Below, piece after piece: positions 12,059-27,834 of a DNA stretch of 64,000 nt. The DNA comes from Veillonellaceae bacterium (GTDB lineage: Bacteria > Bacillota > Negativicutes > JAAYSF01). The notes beneath the pieces were generated by a model, which was given only the letters and a program-made list of their open reading frames with translations, was not told the DNA's origin and did no database searches. A program made the position numbers and the translations under genes. Positions within the stretch are counted from its first letter, which is position 1; every line of letters starts with the position of its first letter. Location: contig JAAYSF010000065.1 in assembly GCA_012523975.1 (NCBI GenBank), positions 1 to 64,000 on the forward strand. Direction: 5' to 3'.

Positions 12059-12508
12059 GTGCATAGCAATGACTTTAGTAATATGCTCACTCTAATGAGA
12101 GCTCAGAATACGTATATAAGTCAAGCTGTTAAATATATATTTTCACTATACAGTGACCTTAATCTGGCGGGTAATACTTCGTTTCAGGAGTTTGCCTTAC
12201 ACTTCCACACTTTTATTATAAACCATGCTAGCAGCGAAGGCTTTAGCAAAGCAATTGAAACACAGCAAGTTTGTAACTACGTTTTACTCGATAAATTATT
12301 GACAACTCAAGTTCTTACAGCTGCCGAAAACCTGGAAACGGCAATAAGTCATTTAGAACTTGTAGGACGATTAAACAATACAAGAACAAATCCAAAGCTG
12401 TTGTTGCTTAATCACAGTATTAGCTTGTTAGAAGAAACAGAACTTAAGATTATTGAGATACTAGAGAGTATTTTAGAAAATTCATGCAAAATACAGTTGC
12501 AAAATTAG
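12059..12508 (+). CDS. Hypothetical protein, mostly helical
   Basis: I do not recognise this 149-residue protein. It is predominantly helical in composition, has no signal peptide or membrane segment, and contains an HFHTFIINHAS segment (residues 47-57) with clustered histidines. Its C-terminal half has heptad-like leucines (LLLLNHSISLLEETELKIIEILESILE). GTG 12059 is well supported by AGGAGGT 12 bases upstream. The gene stands alone between the pfkA terminator and the lar operon; a promoter is likely in 11976-12046 but no clear pair of hexamers was found. Length, codon usage and the ribosome binding site support a real gene. Confidence 0.65.
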   Translation: MHSNDFSNMLTLMRAQNTYISQAVKYIFSLYSDLNLAGNTSFQEFALHFHTFIINHASSEGFSKAIETQQVCNYVLLDKLLTTQVLTAAENLETAISHLELVGRLNNTRTNPKLLLLNHSISLLEETELKIIEILESILENSCKIQLQN

Positions 12509-12634: not shown

Positions 12635-13453
12635 ATGAATGAACTGGATAAAAAACTAGCAGCATTATATAACGAGCTTGCTAATCTAGGAAGTATTGTG
12701 ATAGCATTCTCCGGTGGCGTTGATAGTACCTTTCTCGCGGCTGCAGCCAAAAATGTTTTAGGCGACAATATTGTTGCTATTACTGCGTGCTCAGATAGCT
12801 TTACCGGCCGCGAAATAGCTAGTGCAAAAGCACTAGCAAAACAGCTATCCATTAAACATATATTATTGCCAGCTACAGAATTTGATAATCCTTTATTTAT
12901 AAATAATACGTCTGACCGCTGCTATTATTGTAAAAAGGAGAGATTTTTAGGCCTCTTGGAATGGGCTAGAATAAATGGCTATTCATGGGTTGCTGAAGGG
13001 AGTAATGTCGATGACCTAAAAGACTATCGCCCAGGTATGAAGGCCATTAAAGAGTTAGGTGTCATAAAAAGTCCGTTACTTGATGCAGGATTTACTAAGT
13101 CTGATATAAGAGAACTTTCGAGAGAATGGGGACTTCCTACTTGGAATCAACCAAGTGCAGCGTGTCTTGTTTCACGACTGAGCTATGGCCAAACTATTAC
13201 TCCAGATAAATTAAATCAAATTGAACAATGTGAGGATTTTTTACATCCGTATTGTACCGGACAAGTTCGTGTGCGCCATCACGGTGACTTAGCACGAATT
13301 GAAGTTGACATAGCTGATATTACTGTCTTAGCCTCATCAAAACATGCTAATGAAATAACTCGATACTTTCGTAAGCTTGGCTTCAAATATGTAACATTGG
13401 ATCTTGCTGGATACCGGACAGGCAGCATGAACGATAGCTTGAAGGAGGACTAA
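12635..13453 (+). CDS. larE: ATP-dependent sacrificial sulfur transferase LarE
   Basis: LarE adenylates the pyridinium dicarboxylate mononucleotide made by LarB and inserts sulfur, forming the dithiolated ligand of the nickel-pincer cofactor. The 272-residue protein has the PP-loop SGGVDS (26-31). It also has the family motif RCYYCK (Cys96, Cys99) and NQPSAACLVSR with Cys177 at the position of the sacrificial cysteine described for Lactiplantibacillus LarE. GGGAGG precedes ATG 12635. It begins the larE-larB-larC operon (3-base gap to larB). larA is not present in the window. Confidence 0.93.
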   Translation: MNELDKKLAALYNELANLGSIVIAFSGGVDSTFLAAAAKNVLGDNIVAITACSDSFTGREIASAKALAKQLSIKHILLPATEFDNPLFINNTSDRCYYCKKERFLGLLEWARINGYSWVAEGSNVDDLKDYRPGMKAIKELGVIKSPLLDAGFTKSDIRELSREWGLPTWNQPSAACLVSRLSYGQTITPDKLNQIEQCEDFLHPYCTGQVRVRHHGDLARIEVDIADITVLASSKHANEITRYFRKLGFKYVTLDLAGYRTGSMNDSLKED

Positions 13454-13456
13454 AAC

Positions 13457-14209
13457 GTGGATGCAAACACTGTTATTGATGTTCTAAAATTATTTCGCTC
13501 CGGTACGATAAGCGAACAAGAGGCTCTTGATAAGCTGAAGATTTTACCTTATGAAGATTTGCATTTCGCTAAAATCGATCACCACCGGGCACTTCGCCAG
13601 GGGTTTCCGGAAGTTGTTTATTGCCAGGGTAAAACGGTAGAACAAGTGGTTAAAATCATGGAGGCGCTTACTAAACAAAACAATAATATTTTAGCAACCC
13701 GAGCCAATAAAGAAATGTACGCCGCCGTACAAAACATTATCCCAGACGCAGAGTATCACGAAATTGCAAGGCTTATTATTGTTAGAAGAAGCGAGCTGAA
13801 TATTGATGCTGATCGCTTTATTTTAGTAGTCAGCGCCGGCACAAGCGACATTCCTGTTGCCGAAGAGGCTGCCCTTACTGCTGAAATTATGGGTAATGAG
13901 GTGAAACGCGTTTACGACGTAGGTGTTGCTGGAATCCATAGACTATTAGCTCACCAGGATATACTCCAAAAAGCTAATGTCTTAATTGTAGTTGCTGGCA
14001 TGGAAGGTGCGTTGGCAAGTGTAGTAGGTGGACTAGTTTGTAAACCGGTAATAGCTGTCCCGACTAGCGTAGGCTACGGCGCGAATTTTGGGGGGCTAGC
14101 CGCTTTGCTTAGCATGCTTAATAGCTGTGCTGCAGGTATTGCAGTAGTAAATATCGACAATGGGTTCGGAGCAGGCCGCCTAGCTAGTATGATTAATAGT
14201 ATGAGGTGA
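13457..14209 (+). CDS. larB: Pyridinium-3,5-biscarboxylic acid mononucleotide synthase LarB
   Basis: LarB carboxylates and hydrolyses nicotinic acid adenine dinucleotide, the first step of nickel-pincer cofactor synthesis. The 250-residue protein has a LarB-specific N-terminal part (KIDHHRALRQGFPEVVYCQGK, residues about 35-55) and a PurE-like C-terminal domain with SAGTSDIPVAEEAA near 129-142 and the glycine-rich GVAGIHRLL. GTG 13457 follows GAAGGAGG. The gene sits 3 bases after larE and 4 bases before larC, and the three are almost certainly co-transcribed. Confidence 0.93.
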   Translation: MDANTVIDVLKLFRSGTISEQEALDKLKILPYEDLHFAKIDHHRALRQGFPEVVYCQGKTVEQVVKIMEALTKQNNNILATRANKEMYAAVQNIIPDAEYHEIARLIIVRRSELNIDADRFILVVSAGTSDIPVAEEAALTAEIMGNEVKRVYDVGVAGIHRLLAHQDILQKANVLIVVAGMEGALASVVGGLVCKPVIAVPTSVGYGANFGGLAALLSMLNSCAAGIAVVNIDNGFGAGRLASMINSMR

Positions 14210-14213
14210 TAGA

Positions 14214-15443
14214 ATGAAAGCTATATATTTAGATTGTTTTTCCGGGATTAGCGGTAATATGTTACTAGGTGCCCTCATTGACGCAGGAGTTCCCGAAGAT
14301 AAACTCCGGGCAGAGTTAGCTAAGTTACCAATTGATGGTTATGAATTAGTGATTGACCGAGTAGTGAAAGCCGGTATTAGCGCAGTTTACGTTGATGTAC
14401 AGCTTGATCATCACCACCACGATCACAACGATGAGTATGATCATCACCATCATCATCATCATGAACATAGGCATTTACCAGATATTATAGACATAATTGA
14501 TAATTCATCTTTAGACGTTAAAGTAAAAGAAACAAGTAAGAAAGTATTCCGGCGTTTAGCTGAGGCGGAGGCTAAAGTTCATGGTACAACTATTAACCAA
14601 GTTCATTTCCATGAAGTCGGCGCTGTTGATACAATCATCGATATTGTAGGCACAATTTGGAGTCTCGACTTTCTCGGGATAGAGCAAGTCTACACTTCTA
14701 AAATTCATACCGGGTTTGGCTTCATAAAATGCAGCCACGGCATAATGCCCATACCTGCACCCGCAACAGCCGAACTATTGAAAGGTATTCCTTACTATGA
14801 AGGAAGCGTCGAGCGCGAATTAGTTACACCAACCGGCGCCGCAATTATCGCTACCCTAGGTTTAGGCTACGGGTCAATGCCGCCTAACTTCCGCAGTACT
14901 AAAATCGCCTACGGTGCAGGTACTTGGGATCTCGATATGCCCAATGTCATAAGATTACATATTGGCGATATAGTTGAAAAAGCCGTTCAAACGGAGCTGA
15001 TTGTTGTTGAGGCAAATATCGATGACCTTAATCCGCAGGTCTATGAGTATGCAATGGATATGCTATTAAAAATCGGCGCCTGTGATGTATGGCTAACACC
15101 AATTGTTATGAAGAAGTCACGACCAGCAACTCTAATATCGGTATTAATAAACAGACAAGATTTAGATAAAGTGTGCTCAATTCTGTTCTCTGAAACCTCT
15201 ACCATTGGTGTTCGATATTATCCGGTAGAGCGTAAGGTCGCTCAGCGCGAATTTGAAACTATAAATTCACCATGGGGTACAGTCCAAGTCAAGGTGAGCA
15301 GCTATGATAGTAAAATCTGCAGCATATCGCCTGAATACAATGATTGTCGGCGATTAGCCGAAGAAAATTTTGTTCCATTAAAGAAGGTTCAACAAGTTGT
15401 TATCGATTTAGCGACAAACAAGCTAAATAGTAATTTAACGTGA
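14214..15443 (+). CDS. larC: Nickel insertion protein LarC (uninterrupted)
   Basis: LarC installs nickel into the dithiolated pyridinium ligand using CTP, completing the cofactor of lactate racemase-type enzymes. The 409-residue product opens with YLDCFSGISGNMLLGALIDAG, typical of the family, and carries a histidine-rich segment (about residues 66-87, 14 of 22 residues His), a plausible nickel-holding loop. In Lactiplantibacillus plantarum larC is split into larC1/larC2 and read through by programmed frameshifting; here it is one intact frame. ATG 14214 follows larB by 4 bases. No terminator is evident in the 197 bases downstream. Confidence 0.93.
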   Translation: MKAIYLDCFSGISGNMLLGALIDAGVPEDKLRAELAKLPIDGYELVIDRVVKAGISAVYVDVQLDHHHHDHNDEYDHHHHHHHEHRHLPDIIDIIDNSSLDVKVKETSKKVFRRLAEAEAKVHGTTINQVHFHEVGAVDTIIDIVGTIWSLDFLGIEQVYTSKIHTGFGFIKCSHGIMPIPAPATAELLKGIPYYEGSVERELVTPTGAAIIATLGLGYGSMPPNFRSTKIAYGAGTWDLDMPNVIRLHIGDIVEKAVQTELIVVEANIDDLNPQVYEYAMDMLLKIGACDVWLTPIVMKKSRPATLISVLINRQDLDKVCSILFSETSTIGVRYYPVERKVAQREFETINSPWGTVQVKVSSYDSKICSISPEYNDCRRLAEENFVPLKKVQQVVIDLATNKLNSNLT

Positions 15444-15640: not shown

Positions 15641-16318
15641 ATGAAAGCAAAAGCAGTAGTGCTGCTATCCGGTGGCCTTGATTCAACCGTTTGTATGGCA
15701 GTAGCAAATAGCAAAAGCTATGAATTATATCCAATAAGCTTTAATTACCACCAGCGTCATAACCGCGAATTGTCCTGCGCCCATAAAGTAGCTGAACACT
15801 ACAAAGTTGCCCGACATTTAGTTATTGAAACAAATATGGAGGCGATTGGCGGTAGCGCGTTAACGGATAAGAATATAAGCGTACCGGCCGGTGATGTCAC
15901 AAGGCAAGATATCCCTGTAACATATGTACCTGCCCGGAATTTGATTTTTCTTAGCTACGCCTTAGGTTATGCCGAAGTGATTGGTGCAGAGAAAATTTTC
16001 ATTGGCGTTAATGCCTTAGATTATTCTGGTTACCCCGATTGTCGACCCGAATTTATTAACAAATTTCAAGATTTAGCAAATTACTCGACTACGGCAGCAG
16101 TTCAAAATAGCCGTAAAATTGTTATTGAAACGCCATTACTTAATTTATCCAAGAAAGATATTGTCCTGTTAGGCACACAGCTAGGTGCACCGCTCCATTT
16201 AACTACTAGCTGCTATAATGGAAAAGATGCTGCCTGCGGTGAATGCGACAGCTGCGTTCTCCGGCTTAAAGGATTTTTAGAGGCAGGCATTCCGGATCCG
16301 ATTTTATATGAAAAGTAG
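15641..16318 (+). CDS. queC: 7-cyano-7-deazaguanine (preQ0) synthase QueC
   Basis: QueC uses ATP and ammonia to turn 7-carboxy-7-deazaguanine into preQ0, the precursor of queuosine and of deazaguanine DNA modifications. The 225-residue protein has the PP-loop SGGLDST (9-15). Its C-terminal zinc site reads as C-x7-C-x2-C-x2-C in CYNGKDAACGECDSC. AAGGAAG precedes ATG 15641. folE2 follows immediately and a DNA methyltransferase comes next; queD and queE are not here. It could feed tRNA queuosine or another deazaguanine product; the sequence does not decide. Confidence 0.95.
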   Translation: MKAKAVVLLSGGLDSTVCMAVANSKSYELYPISFNYHQRHNRELSCAHKVAEHYKVARHLVIETNMEAIGGSALTDKNISVPAGDVTRQDIPVTYVPARNLIFLSYALGYAEVIGAEKIFIGVNALDYSGYPDCRPEFINKFQDLANYSTTAAVQNSRKIVIETPLLNLSKKDIVLLGTQLGAPLHLTTSCYNGKDAACGECDSCVLRLKGFLEAGIPDPILYEK

Positions 16319-16329
16319 GAGTGACAAAG

Positions 16330-17118
16330 GTGAAAGATGTTCAAAACGCAGCAGATGAACGCGGTATAGATATTCAGAAAGTTGGTATTAGCGACGTACA
16401 TTTGCCTTTTTTTATAAAAACTAAATCTGGCGCAATGCAATCAGTTTTAGCCCGGATTACACTTACTGTTGATTTGCCAAAAGAATATAAGGGTACTCAT
16501 ATGAGCCGGTTTGTTGAAGTCCTAAGTGACTGGAGCCAAAAACCGGTATCAAGCCGGGAAATGGAGTGTATCCTTAGCGATACTATTACAAGGTTAAATG
16601 CTAAAAGCGCCCAGCTCGATATCAAGTTTAAGTACTTTATCGAGAAAAAAGCTCCGGTCAGCGGCTTGACAAGTATGCTTGACTTGGATTGTCTATTCTC
16701 GGGCACCCTGACACAAGGAGGACGCATGGATTTTACAATGGGTTTGGACGTTCCTTTTACCTCACTATGTCCATGCAGCAAAGAAATATCAGCATATGGA
16801 GCACATAATCAGCGGGGGCTGATGAAGGTAAAACTTAAACACTCTCATGGCAAATTTATTTGGATCGAAGATTTAGCACAACTTATGGAATCCCAGGGGA
16901 GCTGCCCTGTTTATCCATTGCTAAAGCGCGAAGATGAAAAATACGTCACTGAGAAAGCTTACGAAAATCCCAAATTTGTTGAAGATATACTTAGGGATTT
17001 AGTATTAGCGCTTCGCCGATTACCCTACGTGTATTGGTTCGAGATACAATGTGAAAATTTCGAGTCAATCCATAATCACAATGCGTATGCGATGCATGTC
17101 GAATTTGTTGAACAGTAA
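16330..17118 (+). CDS. folE2: GTP cyclohydrolase FolE2 (type IB)
   Basis: FolE2 makes 7,8-dihydroneopterin triphosphate from GTP, the common precursor of folate and of deazaguanines. The 262-residue product carries the catalytic TSLCPCSKEIS motif with its metal-binding cysteine (near residues 144-154) and the following GAHNQRG, both diagnostic of the IB rather than the IA enzyme. GTG 16330 is preferred: AGGAG lies at 16317-16321 and the product begins MKDVQNAADERG, typical of the family. A GTG at 16321 would overlap the ribosome binding site. It is 11 bases after queC and 17 bases before the methyltransferase. Confidence 0.94.
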   Translation: MKDVQNAADERGIDIQKVGISDVHLPFFIKTKSGAMQSVLARITLTVDLPKEYKGTHMSRFVEVLSDWSQKPVSSREMECILSDTITRLNAKSAQLDIKFKYFIEKKAPVSGLTSMLDLDCLFSGTLTQGGRMDFTMGLDVPFTSLCPCSKEISAYGAHNQRGLMKVKLKHSHGKFIWIEDLAQLMESQGSCPVYPLLKREDEKYVTEKAYENPKFVEDILRDLVLALRRLPYVYWFEIQCENFESIHNHNAYAMHVEFVEQ

Positions 17119-17135
17119 ATAAAGGGTTGTGACAG

Positions 17136-19112
17136 ATGAATTGGAAACGCTTTAAAGATCAAGCAGCTACAGTTCAAACTTGGCTCAGAGCCAATAATTA
17201 TAGCGACAATAGCATTATGTACAAAATTTTTGTGCTAATATTGCGTGGTGCTGAGAATCCTTATGTAATTATGGCAGCTGCGCTTAAAAATACCACTGTG
17301 CGTGAGACTGCTAAAGCCAATTTATCTATTATAAGACCTTTAGATTACTTGCCGGATAATATTTATGAGCAAATAGCTCGCTGGGTACTTATCTTGCCTC
17401 GTAAACCCGATATCCTTGGCGAAATATACGAAACACTTGCTTTGGATCGCCGAATAAAGGGGCTATATTACACTCCTCAGGCCATTATTGATTTCATTCT
17501 TGCTAAGACTGTTAGCCAATGCGATGTTAGACTCACTCCAAAAGTAAAAATCCTGGATCCAGCCTGTGGCTGCGGTAGTTTCTTACTGAAAGCCTACGAT
17601 TTGCTATTTGCAAAATTTGTTGAAGCGAGAGAGCAAATAGAACTGCCAAACCCAATTACTGATTTGTCTGACCTTGAAATTCATAACCACATACTTAATT
17701 ATAATTTATGGGGTGCGGATATTGATAGCTTAGCCTGCGATATCACTTTTGCTAGTTTAGTGCTAAAAAACAACTCTCCTGAGGCTAGCGCCGATCCGAA
17801 TATTATCGTGACTGATAGTTTAAATCAGCGCGATAATATCTCAACGCAGCAAGAACGAAACTTTTGGTCACAGCAATACCATTATGTAATTGGAAATCCA
17901 CCTTATCTATCATTTGGCTTACGGGGTGCAAAAAAAGCAGACTCAGAATACCTTGACTATCTACGGAGTACTTATTCGACTGCTCAGTATAAACTCAGTA
18001 TCTATGTATTGTTTATGCAGCGCGGTATCGAAATGCTATCAGCTGGCGGAAAGCTCGGGTTTATTGTTCCCGATAGTTTTTTGCTCGGGCGTTACTTTTC
18101 GAAAATTAGAGAATATATCTTAGAAAACACCCAAATCGACTTGATAGCCCATATTTCCTCGCCAATCTTTAAAAAGGCTACTACTGGATATTTGACTATT
18201 TGTGTTTTTACAAAACGAAGCAAACCTACCGTTAATGAAGATTCTTTATTTAGTATATATCAGCTGCATGAGTCAGAACTTAACCCTAATACACAGCCAC
18301 AGTGTCAATACCAACAAACCTATTTTAATTCAATGCCCCATAAGCGATTTCGGATATTTTTTTCTGAACAGGCCAAACAACTAGTAGATCGTTTGGACAG
18401 AATGGGAGTTGCTTTAAAAGAATATGCTTCAGGTCATAGTGGAATAAGGGCAATATCCGGACAAAGCAGCATAATATCAACTACACCAATTTCCGAAACT
18501 TGGCAGCGTGGCTTAATCTCTGGGAGCCAAGTTCATCGTTACGGCTTAGAATATCAAGGTCACTGGCTTGATATTGATCCAATTAAACTGTACAAAGGCG
18601 GTTGGGATGAACGCATTATCAAGCAGCGTAAAATTTTAGCTAGACAAACAGGTTATTATCTTACCTGCTCTATTGATAATCATGGCTACTTTCATTTAAA
18701 TAACATCCACTCATTCGTAACGACGACGCAGGAAATAAAGTTAGACTATCTCTTGCTGCTCCTTAACTCACGGCTGTTATCATTCTATTATCATATCGTC
18801 ACCATGGAGTTTGGAAGAACTATGGCTCAATGCGATATTGAAACATTAGAGCTATTGCCGATTGTAGTTGATAAGCAACTTAACCAGCAGGCAGCGAATC
18901 TAGTAGCAATCATGGAGACTTGCGTAAGAGAAAGCATAAAAAAAGGCTGCAATGTCTCTCGAAAATCTATTGCTTTTAACGAGTATCTAAATCAGCTTGT
19001 ATATCATGCTTATAACCTATCCGATGACGATATAAGGTATATAGAGGAATATGAGTTCAAGTTAAGCAAGGACTCAGGCAAAAAACTCGGCAAAAGAAAT
19101 ATTTATTTATAG
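17136..19112 (+). CDS. Solitary N6-adenine DNA methyltransferase (Eco57I/TaqI type, CamA-like)
   Basis: This is a predicted SAM-dependent adenine-N6 DNA methyltransferase of 658 residues. Residues 1-100 are helical and unassigned. GLYYTPQAIIDFIL (about 108-121) is followed by SAM motif I, DPACGCGSFLLKAYD (about 139-153), then HILNYNLWGADID, and the catalytic motif IV NPPY near 253-256. The C-terminal 300 residues look like a TaqI-type specificity domain. No nuclease motif was seen in it, and no restriction gene lies beside it. The core resembles, from memory, the orphan sporulation-linked methyltransferase CamA of C. difficile. It starts 17 bases after folE2 and is probably co-transcribed with queC-folE2. 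The recognition sequence is unknown. Confidence 0.88.
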   Translation: MNWKRFKDQAATVQTWLRANNYSDNSIMYKIFVLILRGAENPYVIMAAALKNTTVRETAKANLSIIRPLDYLPDNIYEQIARWVLILPRKPDILGEIYETLALDRRIKGLYYTPQAIIDFILAKTVSQCDVRLTPKVKILDPACGCGSFLLKAYDLLFAKFVEAREQIELPNPITDLSDLEIHNHILNYNLWGADIDSLACDITFASLVLKNNSPEASADPNIIVTDSLNQRDNISTQQERNFWSQQYHYVIGNPPYLSFGLRGAKKADSEYLDYLRSTYSTAQYKLSIYVLFMQRGIEMLSAGGKLGFIVPDSFLLGRYFSKIREYILENTQIDLIAHISSPIFKKATTGYLTICVFTKRSKPTVNEDSLFSIYQLHESELNPNTQPQCQYQQTYFNSMPHKRFRIFFSEQAKQLVDRLDRMGVALKEYASGHSGIRAISGQSSIISTTPISETWQRGLISGSQVHRYGLEYQGHWLDIDPIKLYKGGWDERIIKQRKILARQTGYYLTCSIDNHGYFHLNNIHSFVTTTQEIKLDYLLLLLNSRLLSFYYHIVTMEFGRTMAQCDIETLELLPIVVDKQLNQQAANLVAIMETCVRESIKKGCNVSRKSIAFNEYLNQLVYHAYNLSDDDIRYIEEYEFKLSKDSGKKLGKRNIYL

Positions 19113-19293: not shown

Positions 19294-20277
19294 ATGGCAA
19301 AATTTTATCAGCGGCTTGCCTTATTAATCCTTATTGTCGGTTCAATTTCGGCAGCCTTAATATATTTCACCGTAGATATAAATACTCTTCATCACCTAAG
19401 TGCATTTCAGCCTTGGTCCTTAGGGTTAGCATTTGTGATGCTAGCAGTTGGACTATTTTTTGACGGAACAAGGCTTACGCATCTGGTGAAAATTTCCGGC
19501 GAGCAAATTACCCTGCGGCAAGCTGTTCATGTCGTATTTAGCAACTATTTTCTCGCCTTACTTACGCCTGGAGCGGCTGGGGGAGCTGTTGCTCAAGTTA
19601 TGTTTTTACGCAAAGCCGGCGTGCCTATCGGTAAGGCTACAGTATTAGTAGTTGTGAGAACTATCTTATCAATTCTATTTTTATTTATCTGCTTGCCGAT
19701 TGTTTTTTTTAACGACCCTGGCCTCATACCATGGATATCAGAGAAAATCATTATAGTAATCTCAGTATTCATTGCAGTTTTTATTTTAGCTTCGATATGG
19801 CTTTTTAGAACAAATGCCTTAAATACACTGCTTGTCCGACTAACCAAGCGCTTGGGCCATAGATATCGCCGTCGAATATTTGCAACCTATCGTGATGTAC
19901 GCGGCGCGGTTTTCATGCTTTCATCAGCGCCGCTTAGTATGCTTATGGTACTAGTAGAGTCAGCTATAAGCCTACTTGCTTTATATAGTGTTGTTCCTAT
20001 TCTTTTTATGGGAATGGGCGTAACAGCCGACTGGTTACTAATAATGGGCAGAATGATTTTGCTTAATATTTTACTATATTTTGCGCCGACCCCTGGCGGA
20101 TCAGGCATTGCTGAAGGCGGCTTTGTTTTGCTGTTCAGTGCCTTTGTTCCGTCGGGAATGGTTGGAATTGCAGCAGTTACATGGCGTATTTTAGTTGAAT
20201 ACTTACCCTTTACAATTGGTCTTTACTATACAGTAAAGGTTTTTGGCCGTGACTTTTTATCAAAACAGATAAAATAG
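19294..20277 (+). CDS. Lysylphosphatidylglycerol synthase/flippase-like membrane protein (UPF0104 family)
   Basis: This is a 327-residue polytopic membrane protein of the family that includes the transmembrane half of MprF, with about eight hydrophobic segments. Family hallmarks are the LLTPGAAGGAVAQVMFLRKAG stretch near residues 89-109 and the C-terminal FAPTPGGSGIAEGGF near 263-277. Such proteins are implicated in moving lipids or lipid-linked sugars across the membrane; the substrate is not predictable. It lacks the soluble aminoacyl-transferase domain of full MprF. GGGGAG precedes ATG 19294, and an epimerase gene follows 13 bases downstream, suggesting a glycolipid or envelope-polysaccharide role. 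Confidence 0.82.
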   Translation: MAKFYQRLALLILIVGSISAALIYFTVDINTLHHLSAFQPWSLGLAFVMLAVGLFFDGTRLTHLVKISGEQITLRQAVHVVFSNYFLALLTPGAAGGAVAQVMFLRKAGVPIGKATVLVVVRTILSILFLFICLPIVFFNDPGLIPWISEKIIIVISVFIAVFILASIWLFRTNALNTLLVRLTKRLGHRYRRRIFATYRDVRGAVFMLSSAPLSMLMVLVESAISLLALYSVVPILFMGMGVTADWLLIMGRMILLNILLYFAPTPGGSGIAEGGFVLLFSAFVPSGMVGIAAVTWRILVEYLPFTIGLYYTVKVFGRDFLSKQIK

Positions 20278-20290
20278 GAGGCTGCTTCTT

Positions 20291-21241
20291 ATGAAGCTGC
20301 TTGTAACAGGCGGCGCCGGCTTTATAGGTTCGCATATAGTTGATAAGCTTATAGAGACAAACCACCAAGTTGTAATAGTCGATGACCTAAGTTTAGGAGT
20401 CAAGGAAAACCTTAACCCAGGTGCTCAGTTTATAGAGATGGATATTCGCTGTAGATCTCTGAATGATCTCATCGAACAAGAGAAATTTGATATTGTAATT
20501 CACCAGGCCGCCCAAACGATGGTTTCTACATCTATTGAAAATCCATTCCTGGATTGTAATATCAATATTACCGGAACAGTAAATCTGCTCGAGGCCTGTC
20601 GTAAAAACTGTGTAAAAAGAATAATATATTCCTCGTCAGCCGCTGTTTATGGTGGCGAAAACAGTTTACCAATAAAAGAGACTGCTTCGCTCAATCCTAC
20701 TTCGTTTTATGGGTTGAGCAAGTTAACTGTAGAAAAATATTTTGAGCTTTACCACAAGTTTTTTGGCTTGCAATATATTATACTTCGCTACGCTAATGTT
20801 TACGGTGAACGTCAAGCTGCTTCAGACGCGGGGGGCGTTATTAGTATTTTTACCAGAAAAGTTCAAAATGGTGAAAAAGTTTACATAAACGGTGACGGCA
20901 GCCAAACTCGCGACTTTATCTATGTCGGAGACGTAGCGTGGGCCAATATACAGGCATTACTCACTCCTTATGTAAATCGTGTATATAATATTAGTACTCA
21001 GACAGAAACTAGCCTCAATACTTTATTTGACCTAATAGCTAAAATTTCCGGCAGAACAGTTGAACGACAATACCTTAGCCCTCGTGCTGGCGATATCTAC
21101 CGTTCCTCACTCTTAAACAAATCAGCACGCAAATATCTATGCTGGTATCCTACGACTACATTAACGGACGGATTAACTCGCACTTATAATTTTTTCAAGA
21201 GTAGACGAATAGACAAAGATACCTTGCAAGGTTACAAATAA
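20291..21241 (+). CDS. NAD-dependent epimerase/dehydratase (UDP-glucose 4-epimerase-like)
   Basis: This is a 316-residue short-chain dehydrogenase of the extended class acting on nucleotide sugars. It shows the Rossmann motif TGGAGFIGSH (residues 6-15), the catalytic serine context SSSAAVYGG, the YxxxK motif YGLSK near 139-143, and a C-terminal substrate segment RAGDIYRSSL. It is most like GalE-type UDP-hexose 4-epimerases, but related UDP-glucuronate epimerases or dehydratases cannot be excluded. GGAGG lies upstream, and 13 bases separate it from the flippase-like gene. Confidence 0.85.
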   Translation: MKLLVTGGAGFIGSHIVDKLIETNHQVVIVDDLSLGVKENLNPGAQFIEMDIRCRSLNDLIEQEKFDIVIHQAAQTMVSTSIENPFLDCNINITGTVNLLEACRKNCVKRIIYSSSAAVYGGENSLPIKETASLNPTSFYGLSKLTVEKYFELYHKFFGLQYIILRYANVYGERQAASDAGGVISIFTRKVQNGEKVYINGDGSQTRDFIYVGDVAWANIQALLTPYVNRVYNISTQTETSLNTLFDLIAKISGRTVERQYLSPRAGDIYRSSLLNKSARKYLCWYPTTTLTDGLTRTYNFFKSRRIDKDTLQGYK

Positions 21242-27476: not shown

Positions 27477-27660
27477 AAAACAGCAAATAGTGTTATAATA
27501 ACTGGGTTCAGAGGCATTTTAAATTTAAATATTTTCACAAATAATTTAGAAGGAAATTTATTTTATTGATGGAATATATATTAATTAGCATTTTGGTAAT
27601 ATATATTTGCTAGACCGCAATTTTATGTCCTAGCTAATTCAAGAACTAAATATTATAAGG

Positions 27661-27806
27661 GAATAGGTGCTAATGCTTAAAATGGGAAGCCGGTGAAAAT
27701 CCAGCGCGGTCCCGCCACTGTAATGGTGAGTTCCTTACGTATACCACTGGACTATTCTGGGAAGGTGTAAGGAATGATGAGCCAGAGTCAGGAGACCTGC
27801 CTATTC
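27661..27806 (+). promoter_or_regulatory. Cobalamin (B12) riboswitch aptamer
   Basis: The aptamer core includes GGGAAGCCGGTGAAAATCC (27684-27702) and GGTCCCGCCACTGT (27708-27721). The B12 box GCCAGAGTCAGGAGACCTGC starts at 27781. A closing P1 stem pairs GAATAGG (27661-27667) with CCTATTC (27800-27806). It precedes the cobalamin biosynthesis operon, the classic target of feedback control by adenosylcobalamin. Confidence 0.95.
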
Positions 27807-27834
27807 TAACACACACCGTTATGACCTACGGTAG

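What the first reader, a model, noticed from the sequence alone, without database searches (positions are those of the whole stretch)
15641..19112. Solitary CamA-like adenine methyltransferase co-transcribed with preQ0-pathway genes queC and folE2
The methyltransferase starts 17 bases after folE2 with no terminator. It has motif I, NPPY and a TaqI-like C-terminus but no nuclease partner. Its YYTP, HILN-Y and GADID segments resemble, from memory, the orphan methyltransferase CamA that affects sporulation in C. difficile. Operon linkage of an epigenetic methyltransferase with deazaguanine-precursor enzymes is unusual. It may be chance, or hint at coordinated nucleic-acid modification.
Basis: partly seen in the sequence, partly recalled or inferred. 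Interest (0 to 1): 0.62.

Follow-up and report, generated by a model that had tools for sequence, protein, structure and literature searches.

The report
Conserved solitary methyltransferase, sister to CamA
The gene is a real stand-alone DNA adenine methyltransferase that most spore-forming families sampled in its bacterial class keep, usually at one fixed chromosomal spot; it shares its catalytic ancestry with CamA, which tunes sporulation in C. difficile, but probably reads a different DNA word, and its neighbours queC and folE2 look like fellow residents rather than partners.

Summary
Confirmed: queC (15641-16318), folE2 (16321-17118) and a 658-aa gamma-class adenine methyltransferase (17136-19112) lie on one strand with gaps of 2 and 17 bp and no nuclease gene beside them. 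The CamA resemblance survives tests. CamA is by far the best solved relative by sequence (1e-33; 3e-54 with the family profile) and by fold (TM 0.76). In a 50-row catalytic-domain tree the family and CamA orthologues form one clade (100/98). But it is not a CamA orthologue: the target-recognition domain (TRD) does not align, and CamA's base-reading residues are absent. The gene belongs to a vertically inherited family holding the same place (folE2-MTase-YdjC-flippase-epimerase) in 18 genomes of 8 families; a sister branch sits beside the spore protease gene yabG. Its TRD is more conserved than its catalytic domain (36/36 pairs; ordinary relatives show the reverse), so one DNA target is being kept, unlike in restriction-modification. 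It occurs almost only in spore formers, but independent contrasts are too few to prove a link. The queC/folE2 linkage is conserved but separable. Best reading: an orphan regulatory m6A methyltransferase, CamA-like in mode, with a different unknown target; a sporulation role is plausible, unproven.

The parts
17136..19112 (+). orphan gamma-class N6-adenine DNA methyltransferase, 658 aa
   Evidence: ORF; PF07669/PF02384/PF12950; best solved relative CamA
17136..17411 (+). N-terminal helical extension, residues 1-92, poorly conserved, absent from CamA and from most of the yabG-linked branch
   Evidence: mean pairwise identity 0.285; low pLDDT; alignment A1
17412..18260 (+). catalytic domain, residues 93-375
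   Evidence: aligned to CamA 5-303; mean pairwise identity 0.58
17556..17582 (+). SAM-binding motif I DPACGCGSF (residues 141-149)
   Evidence: sequence; D141, P142, C144, G145, G147, F149 invariant in the 17-row family alignment
17895..17906 (+). catalytic motif IV NPPY (residues 254-257)
   Evidence: sequence; invariant in all 26 rows
18426..18866 (+). target-recognition domain (TaqI_C-like), residues 431-577; the most conserved domain of the family
   Evidence: PF12950 460-576; mean pairwise identity 0.67; TRD/catalytic ratio 1.18 against 0.59 in other relatives
16321..17118 (+). folE2, GTP cyclohydrolase, 17 bp upstream; conserved neighbour, separable
   Evidence: NF010200; upstream in 17 of 18 loci
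15641..16318 (+). queC, 7-cyano-7-deazaguanine synthase; conserved neighbour, separable
   Evidence: TIGR00364; present in 13 of 18 loci
19294..20277 (+). flippase-like membrane protein; conserved downstream anchor of the locus
   Evidence: PF03706; downstream in 15 of 18 loci
20291..21241 (+). NAD-dependent sugar epimerase; conserved downstream anchor
   Evidence: PF01370; synteny
12635..15443 (+). larE-larB-larC, conserved upstream anchor of the locus
   Evidence: TIGR00268, NF033503, TIGR00299; synteny

Best explanation
It is a vertically inherited orphan (nuclease-free) gamma-class N6-adenine DNA methyltransferase of a family in spore-forming members of this class (very probably Negativicutes). 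It shares a catalytic lineage with C. difficile CamA. Shown: domain make-up, CamA-like fold and phylogeny, solitary state, fixed chromosomal place, a TRD under stronger constraint than the catalytic domain, and near-restriction to genomes with sporulation genes. Inferred: it methylates one short asymmetric adenine motif shared across the family, different from CAAAAA. As in CamA, methylation at one or a few promoter sites would shift regulator binding and so the share of cells expressing certain genes, with sporulation genes the leading candidates. The queC-folE2 neighbours are co-residents of an ancestral gene block, possibly sharing a transcript, but not functional partners.
For: Best solved match CamA, 1.3e-33, next 1.4e-8; family profile 2.8e-54, next 2.7e-18. 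AF2 model pLDDT 80.3, pTM 0.81; the first 33 Foldseek hits are all CamA, TM 0.74-0.79 by target length, next M.BseCI at 0.65-0.69. Clade of family + yabG-linked branch + CamA orthologues at UFBoot 100 / SH-aLRT 98 against 31 other gamma-MTases. Same locus in 18 genomes of 8 families, all co-directional; the MTase tree follows the RpoB tree in its main groups. TRD more conserved than catalytic domain in 36/36 core pairs, ratio 1.18, against 0.59 in other Eco57I-type pairs of the same catalytic identity. No nuclease neighbour in any core locus. In 381 genomes of the class, 31 carry it; 29 of these have SpoIVA, one more has SpoIVB, and the last is 65% complete; 2 of 330 SpoIVA-negative genomes carry it. 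None in 399 genomes drawn from the phylum other than the window's own. The sister branch lies next to yabG. CamA mechanism: PMC13395437, PMC8187626.
Against: No methylome or expression data. The target motif is unknown, so a nuclease elsewhere in the genome for the same site cannot be excluded (distant type II partners exist, PMC4752239). The sporulation association loses statistical weight once shared descent is counted: 2-4 supported independent contrasts, sign test p = 1, though none runs the other way. 22 of 51 SpoIVA-positive genomes lack it, so it is dispensable for sporulation as such. CamA's R425, Q438, W439, R441 and Y455 are not conserved, so no CamA target can be transferred.
Confidence: 0.68

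Rival explanations
1. Modification half of a restriction-modification system whose nuclease is encoded elsewhere or was lost recently.
For: PADLOC and Pfam models of type II/IIG methyltransferases match the catalytic domain; distant type II nuclease partners are known (PMC4752239).
Against: No nuclease beside it in any of 18 core loci or in the yabG-linked loci; vertical descent in one fixed place; TRD more conserved than catalytic domain, opposite to ordinary relatives.
Confidence: 0.12
2. Functionally coupled to queC-folE2: the operon coordinates deazaguanine supply with DNA or RNA modification.
For: 17-bp gap in the window, 14-23 bp in four further genomes; folE2 upstream in 17 of 18 loci.
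Against: Gaps of 60-246 bp elsewhere; queC-folE2 persist without the MTase in seven spore formers and the MTase persists without them in G115 and in the yabG-linked branch; larBC, YdjC and flippase are linked just as tightly; no preQ1 riboswitch.
Confidence: 0.06
3. A phage-defence or anti-restriction methyltransferase (BREX PglX-like or similar).
For: NCBIfam BREX PglX models match partially; BrxX among weaker structural matches.
Against: All far below model cut-offs; no defence genes nearby; the larger PglX- or IIG-like phylum hits fall outside the CamA clade; fixed housekeeping locus.
Confidence: 0.05
4. Orphan methyltransferase with a non-sporulation role (replication timing, repair, general expression), found in spore formers only through shared ancestry.
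For: Too few independent contrasts to separate descent from function; many spore formers lack it; Dam and CcrM precedents.
Against: Closest characterised relative acts on sporulation (PMC13395437); not one clearly non-sporulating genome keeps it; sister branch next to yabG.
Confidence: 0.35

Closest known systems
CamA of Clostridioides difficile (PDB 7LNI, 7LT5)
   Same: Solitary gamma-class N6-adenine methyltransferase of a spore former; same catalytic clade (100/98); whole-chain fold match TM about 0.76; TRD strongly conserved within each lineage.
   Different: Only about 22% TRD identity and about 33% catalytic identity; lacks the Arg425-bearing segment and Gln438, Trp439, Arg441, Tyr455; has an extra N-terminal extension of about 90 residues; different locus; target unknown.
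Dam and CcrM
   Same: Class-wide conserved orphan adenine methyltransferases without nuclease.
   Different: Alpha and beta motif order, respectively (PMC8187626); different architecture; palindromic targets.
M.TaqI and Eco57I-type IIG enzymes, BREX PglX
   Same: N6_Mtase/Eco57I catalytic domain; TaqI_C-like TRD.
   Different: Paired with or fused to nucleases or defence genes; TRDs of the sampled relatives diverge faster than catalytic domains; outside the CamA clade.

Membership tests
Gamma-class N6-adenine DNA methyltransferase (Eco57I/N6_Mtase) | Motif I, then NPPY motif IV, then C-terminal TRD, over curated cut-offs | tested here: met
Orphan (solitary) methyltransferase | No nuclease domain in the protein and no nuclease gene beside it, conserved across relatives | tested here: met
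Orphan (solitary) methyltransferase | No nuclease for the same site anywhere in the genome | not testable with these tools
   motif unknown
CamA catalytic lineage | Shares a supported clade with CamA orthologues excluding other gamma-MTases | tested here: met
   (UFBoot 100, SH-aLRT 98)
CamA orthologue | Full-length alignment including TRD, as C. mangenotii CamA shows (709 bits over residues 12-579) | tested here: not met
   profile 187.7 bits over 88-394, TRD 4.8 bits
CamA orthologue | Base-contact residues R425, Q438, W439, R441, Y455 (PMC8187626) | tested here: not met
   kept in both CamA relatives, none in the family
CamA orthologue | Methylates CAAAAA | not testable with these tools
   no methylation data; predicted different
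Regulator of sporulation | Found with sporulation genes | tested here: inconclusive
   almost exclusive; independent contrasts too few
preQ0/queuosine pathway partner | Inseparable linkage to queC-folE2 | tested here: not met
BREX PglX / MADS | Score above NCBIfam curated cut-off | tested here: not met
   105.8 against 500, 59.8 against 720

The most novel reading that the evidence does not exclude
CamA is not a peculiarity of C. difficile but one branch of an old lineage of orphan methyltransferases in spore-forming Bacillota; in diderm spore formers the sister branch, with its own fixed DNA word, epigenetically sets the fraction of cells entering sporulation.
Probability: 0.3. Interest if true: 0.8.

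Novelty: new variant of a known kind. Interest (0 to 1): 0.56.

Why it matters
CamA is described as specific to C. difficile and rare elsewhere (PMC8187626, PMC13395437). A family sharing its catalytic ancestry, kept over most spore-forming families sampled in another class and with a frozen recognition domain, gives a comparative system for asking how adenine methylation became tied to sporulation. It also gives non-pathogenic hosts in which to test that. Three recognition-domain types on one catalytic lineage (CamA, lar-que locus, yabG locus) make motif and function directly testable with long-read sequencing.

Tried and rejected
First genome-contig scan with the window protein: 20 pattern hits, no relatives. 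G047 RpoB was read in the wrong frame and G022 sat on a very long branch; both were dropped. G001 looked at first like a non-sporulating close relative that had lost the MTase (no SpoIVA), but it has SpoIVB, so this apparent co-loss was withdrawn. The tree with the partial CamA sequence placed it on a very long branch; replaced by full CamA orthologues L103 and L110. A promoter shared by the longer folE2-MTase spacers was looked for by alignment: only a short AT-rich stretch is shared by near relatives, not pursued. Rfam: nothing upstream. A genome-wide search for DNA deazaguanine (dpd) genes was not done: searches exhausted.

Full report
Observation. The window holds, on the + strand, larE-larB-larC (12635-15443), queC (15641-16318), folE2 (16321-17118), a 658-aa methyltransferase (17136-19112), a flippase-like gene (19294-20277) and a sugar epimerase (20291-21241). 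Between folE2 and the methyltransferase are 17 bases with a ribosome-binding-like sequence and no terminator or promoter match. The protein hits Eco57I, N6_Mtase and TaqI_C Pfam models over cut-off. No nuclease is beside it or fused to it.

Relation to CamA. Among all PDB sequences CamA is the best match (1.3e-33, next 1.4e-8). With a profile of the family it is 2.8e-54, next 2.7e-18. An AlphaFold model (pLDDT 80.3, pTM 0.81) retrieves CamA entries as the first 33 Foldseek hits over about 580 columns, TM 0.74-0.79 by target length; M.BseCI follows at 0.65-0.69. A catalytic-domain tree of 50 proteins puts the family and CamA orthologues (Clostridioides mangenotii L103, Peptostreptococcaceae L110, plus Clostridiales L111 and L231) in one clade with 100/98 support, apart from 31 other gamma-class enzymes (quick trees agree). 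The resemblance is therefore real and specific, not generic.

Where it departs from CamA. The yardstick is the C. mangenotii protein, which matches CamA end to end at 709 bits. The window family matches only the catalytic half; its TRD scores 4.8 bits. Five base-contact residues reported for CamA (PMC8187626) are kept in both CamA relatives, but all five are replaced or deleted in the 17 core proteins. The residue mapping rests on a low-identity alignment, but the missing Arg425-bearing segment is plain. A different DNA target is inferred.

A conserved family in one place. Full-length homologues (45-55% identity) occur in several families of the class. In 18 core genomes from 8 families the gene sits co-directionally in the same block: 149-aa gene - larEBC - (RNase H) - (HD-domain gene) - queC - folE2 - MTase - (aminotransferase) - YdjC - flippase - epimerase - ArnT-like. 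folE2 is directly upstream in 17 of 18, queC present in 13, the flippase downstream in 15. The MTase tree follows the RpoB tree in its main groups, so descent looks vertical. In MTase-less spore formers of the class, folE2 runs on to YdjC or the flippase with 71-1095 bp between folE2 and flippase; two such loci read in full have no MTase remnant. A sister branch (about 40% identity) lies elsewhere, next to the sporulation protease gene yabG, mostly co-directional and downstream.

Constraint on the recognition domain. Mean pairwise identity in the core family is 0.67 in the TRD, 0.58 in the catalytic domain and 0.28 in the N-terminal extension. With a uniform method, the TRD exceeds the catalytic domain in 36 of 36 core pairs and 6 of 6 yabG-branch pairs. 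Other Eco57I-type relatives at the same catalytic identity have a TRD/catalytic ratio of 0.59. The comparison pits orthologues against mixed paralogues, so it shows that specificity is frozen here, not by itself why. A frozen target is what orphan regulators show and what restriction-modification enzymes, which switch targets, usually do not.

Sporulation. In 381 genomes of the class, 31 carry the gene (E <= 1e-80) and 51 carry SpoIVA; 29 carry both. Of the two exceptions, one has SpoIVB and the other is 65% complete. None was found outside the class in a phylum sample of 399 at E <= 1e-60. Raw counts are striking, but on the RpoB tree only 2-4 supported independent contrasts exist, all neutral or in the expected direction, sign test p = 1. 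22 SpoIVA-positive genomes do without it. The link is plausible, supported by CamA's known role through one methylated site in the spoIIE promoter (PMC13395437) and by the yabG adjacency, but not shown.

queC-folE2. The linkage is old and conserved but separable on both sides, spacing is tight in only part of the family, and no preQ1 riboswitch precedes queC. The MTase may share a transcript with them in this genome. Nothing suggests a common pathway.

Limits. Motif, activity, expression and phenotype are untested. A distant cognate nuclease cannot be excluded.

Verdict. A real, solitary, CamA-lineage methyltransferase with its own recognition domain, conserved in place and in target domain across spore-forming families of its class: a new variant of a known kind. 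Interest is moderate to good, because the family had not surfaced in the literature searched here (subscription papers and REBASE could not be searched) and its function is directly testable.

Noticed in passing
window 12059-12508: 149-aa gene with no Pfam or NCBIfam match that is syntenic upstream of the lar genes in about 15 loci: a conserved unknown of this block.
   Followed up: partly
window 14400-14480 (larC): LarC carries a long histidine-rich insert (HHHHDHNDEYDHHHHHHHEHRH), probably a nickel-binding stretch.
   Followed up: no
L053-L058 (genomes G111, G119, G035, G059, G083, G107): Sister branch of the methyltransferase lies next to yabG, with ksgA upstream and a SipL/SPOCS-domain gene downstream: a sporulation-rich neighbourhood.
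   Followed up: partly
L238, L239, L241, L242, L244: A separate family of about 700-aa Eco57I-like methyltransferases in one family (f46) of the phylum also has a TRD more conserved than its catalytic domain: another candidate conserved orphan.
   Followed up: no
window 27648-27818 (+): Cobalamin riboswitch (RF00174, 105 bits).
   Followed up: no
L051 about 1900-1950: The methyltransferase of G103 is split by Ns followed by QMCIRDR, which looks like a sequencing-adapter remnant in the assembly rather than a real disruption.
   Followed up: no
L035-L048, downstream of the methyltransferase: Conserved YdjC-like deacetylase, flippase, epimerase and ArnT-like glycosyltransferase module, probably envelope glycolipid modification.
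   Followed up: partly
G000:C40:33402-33716 (L062): A second Eco57I-type methyltransferase match in the same genome (406-aa frame beside a 1107-aa ORF), not a copy of this gene.
   Followed up: no
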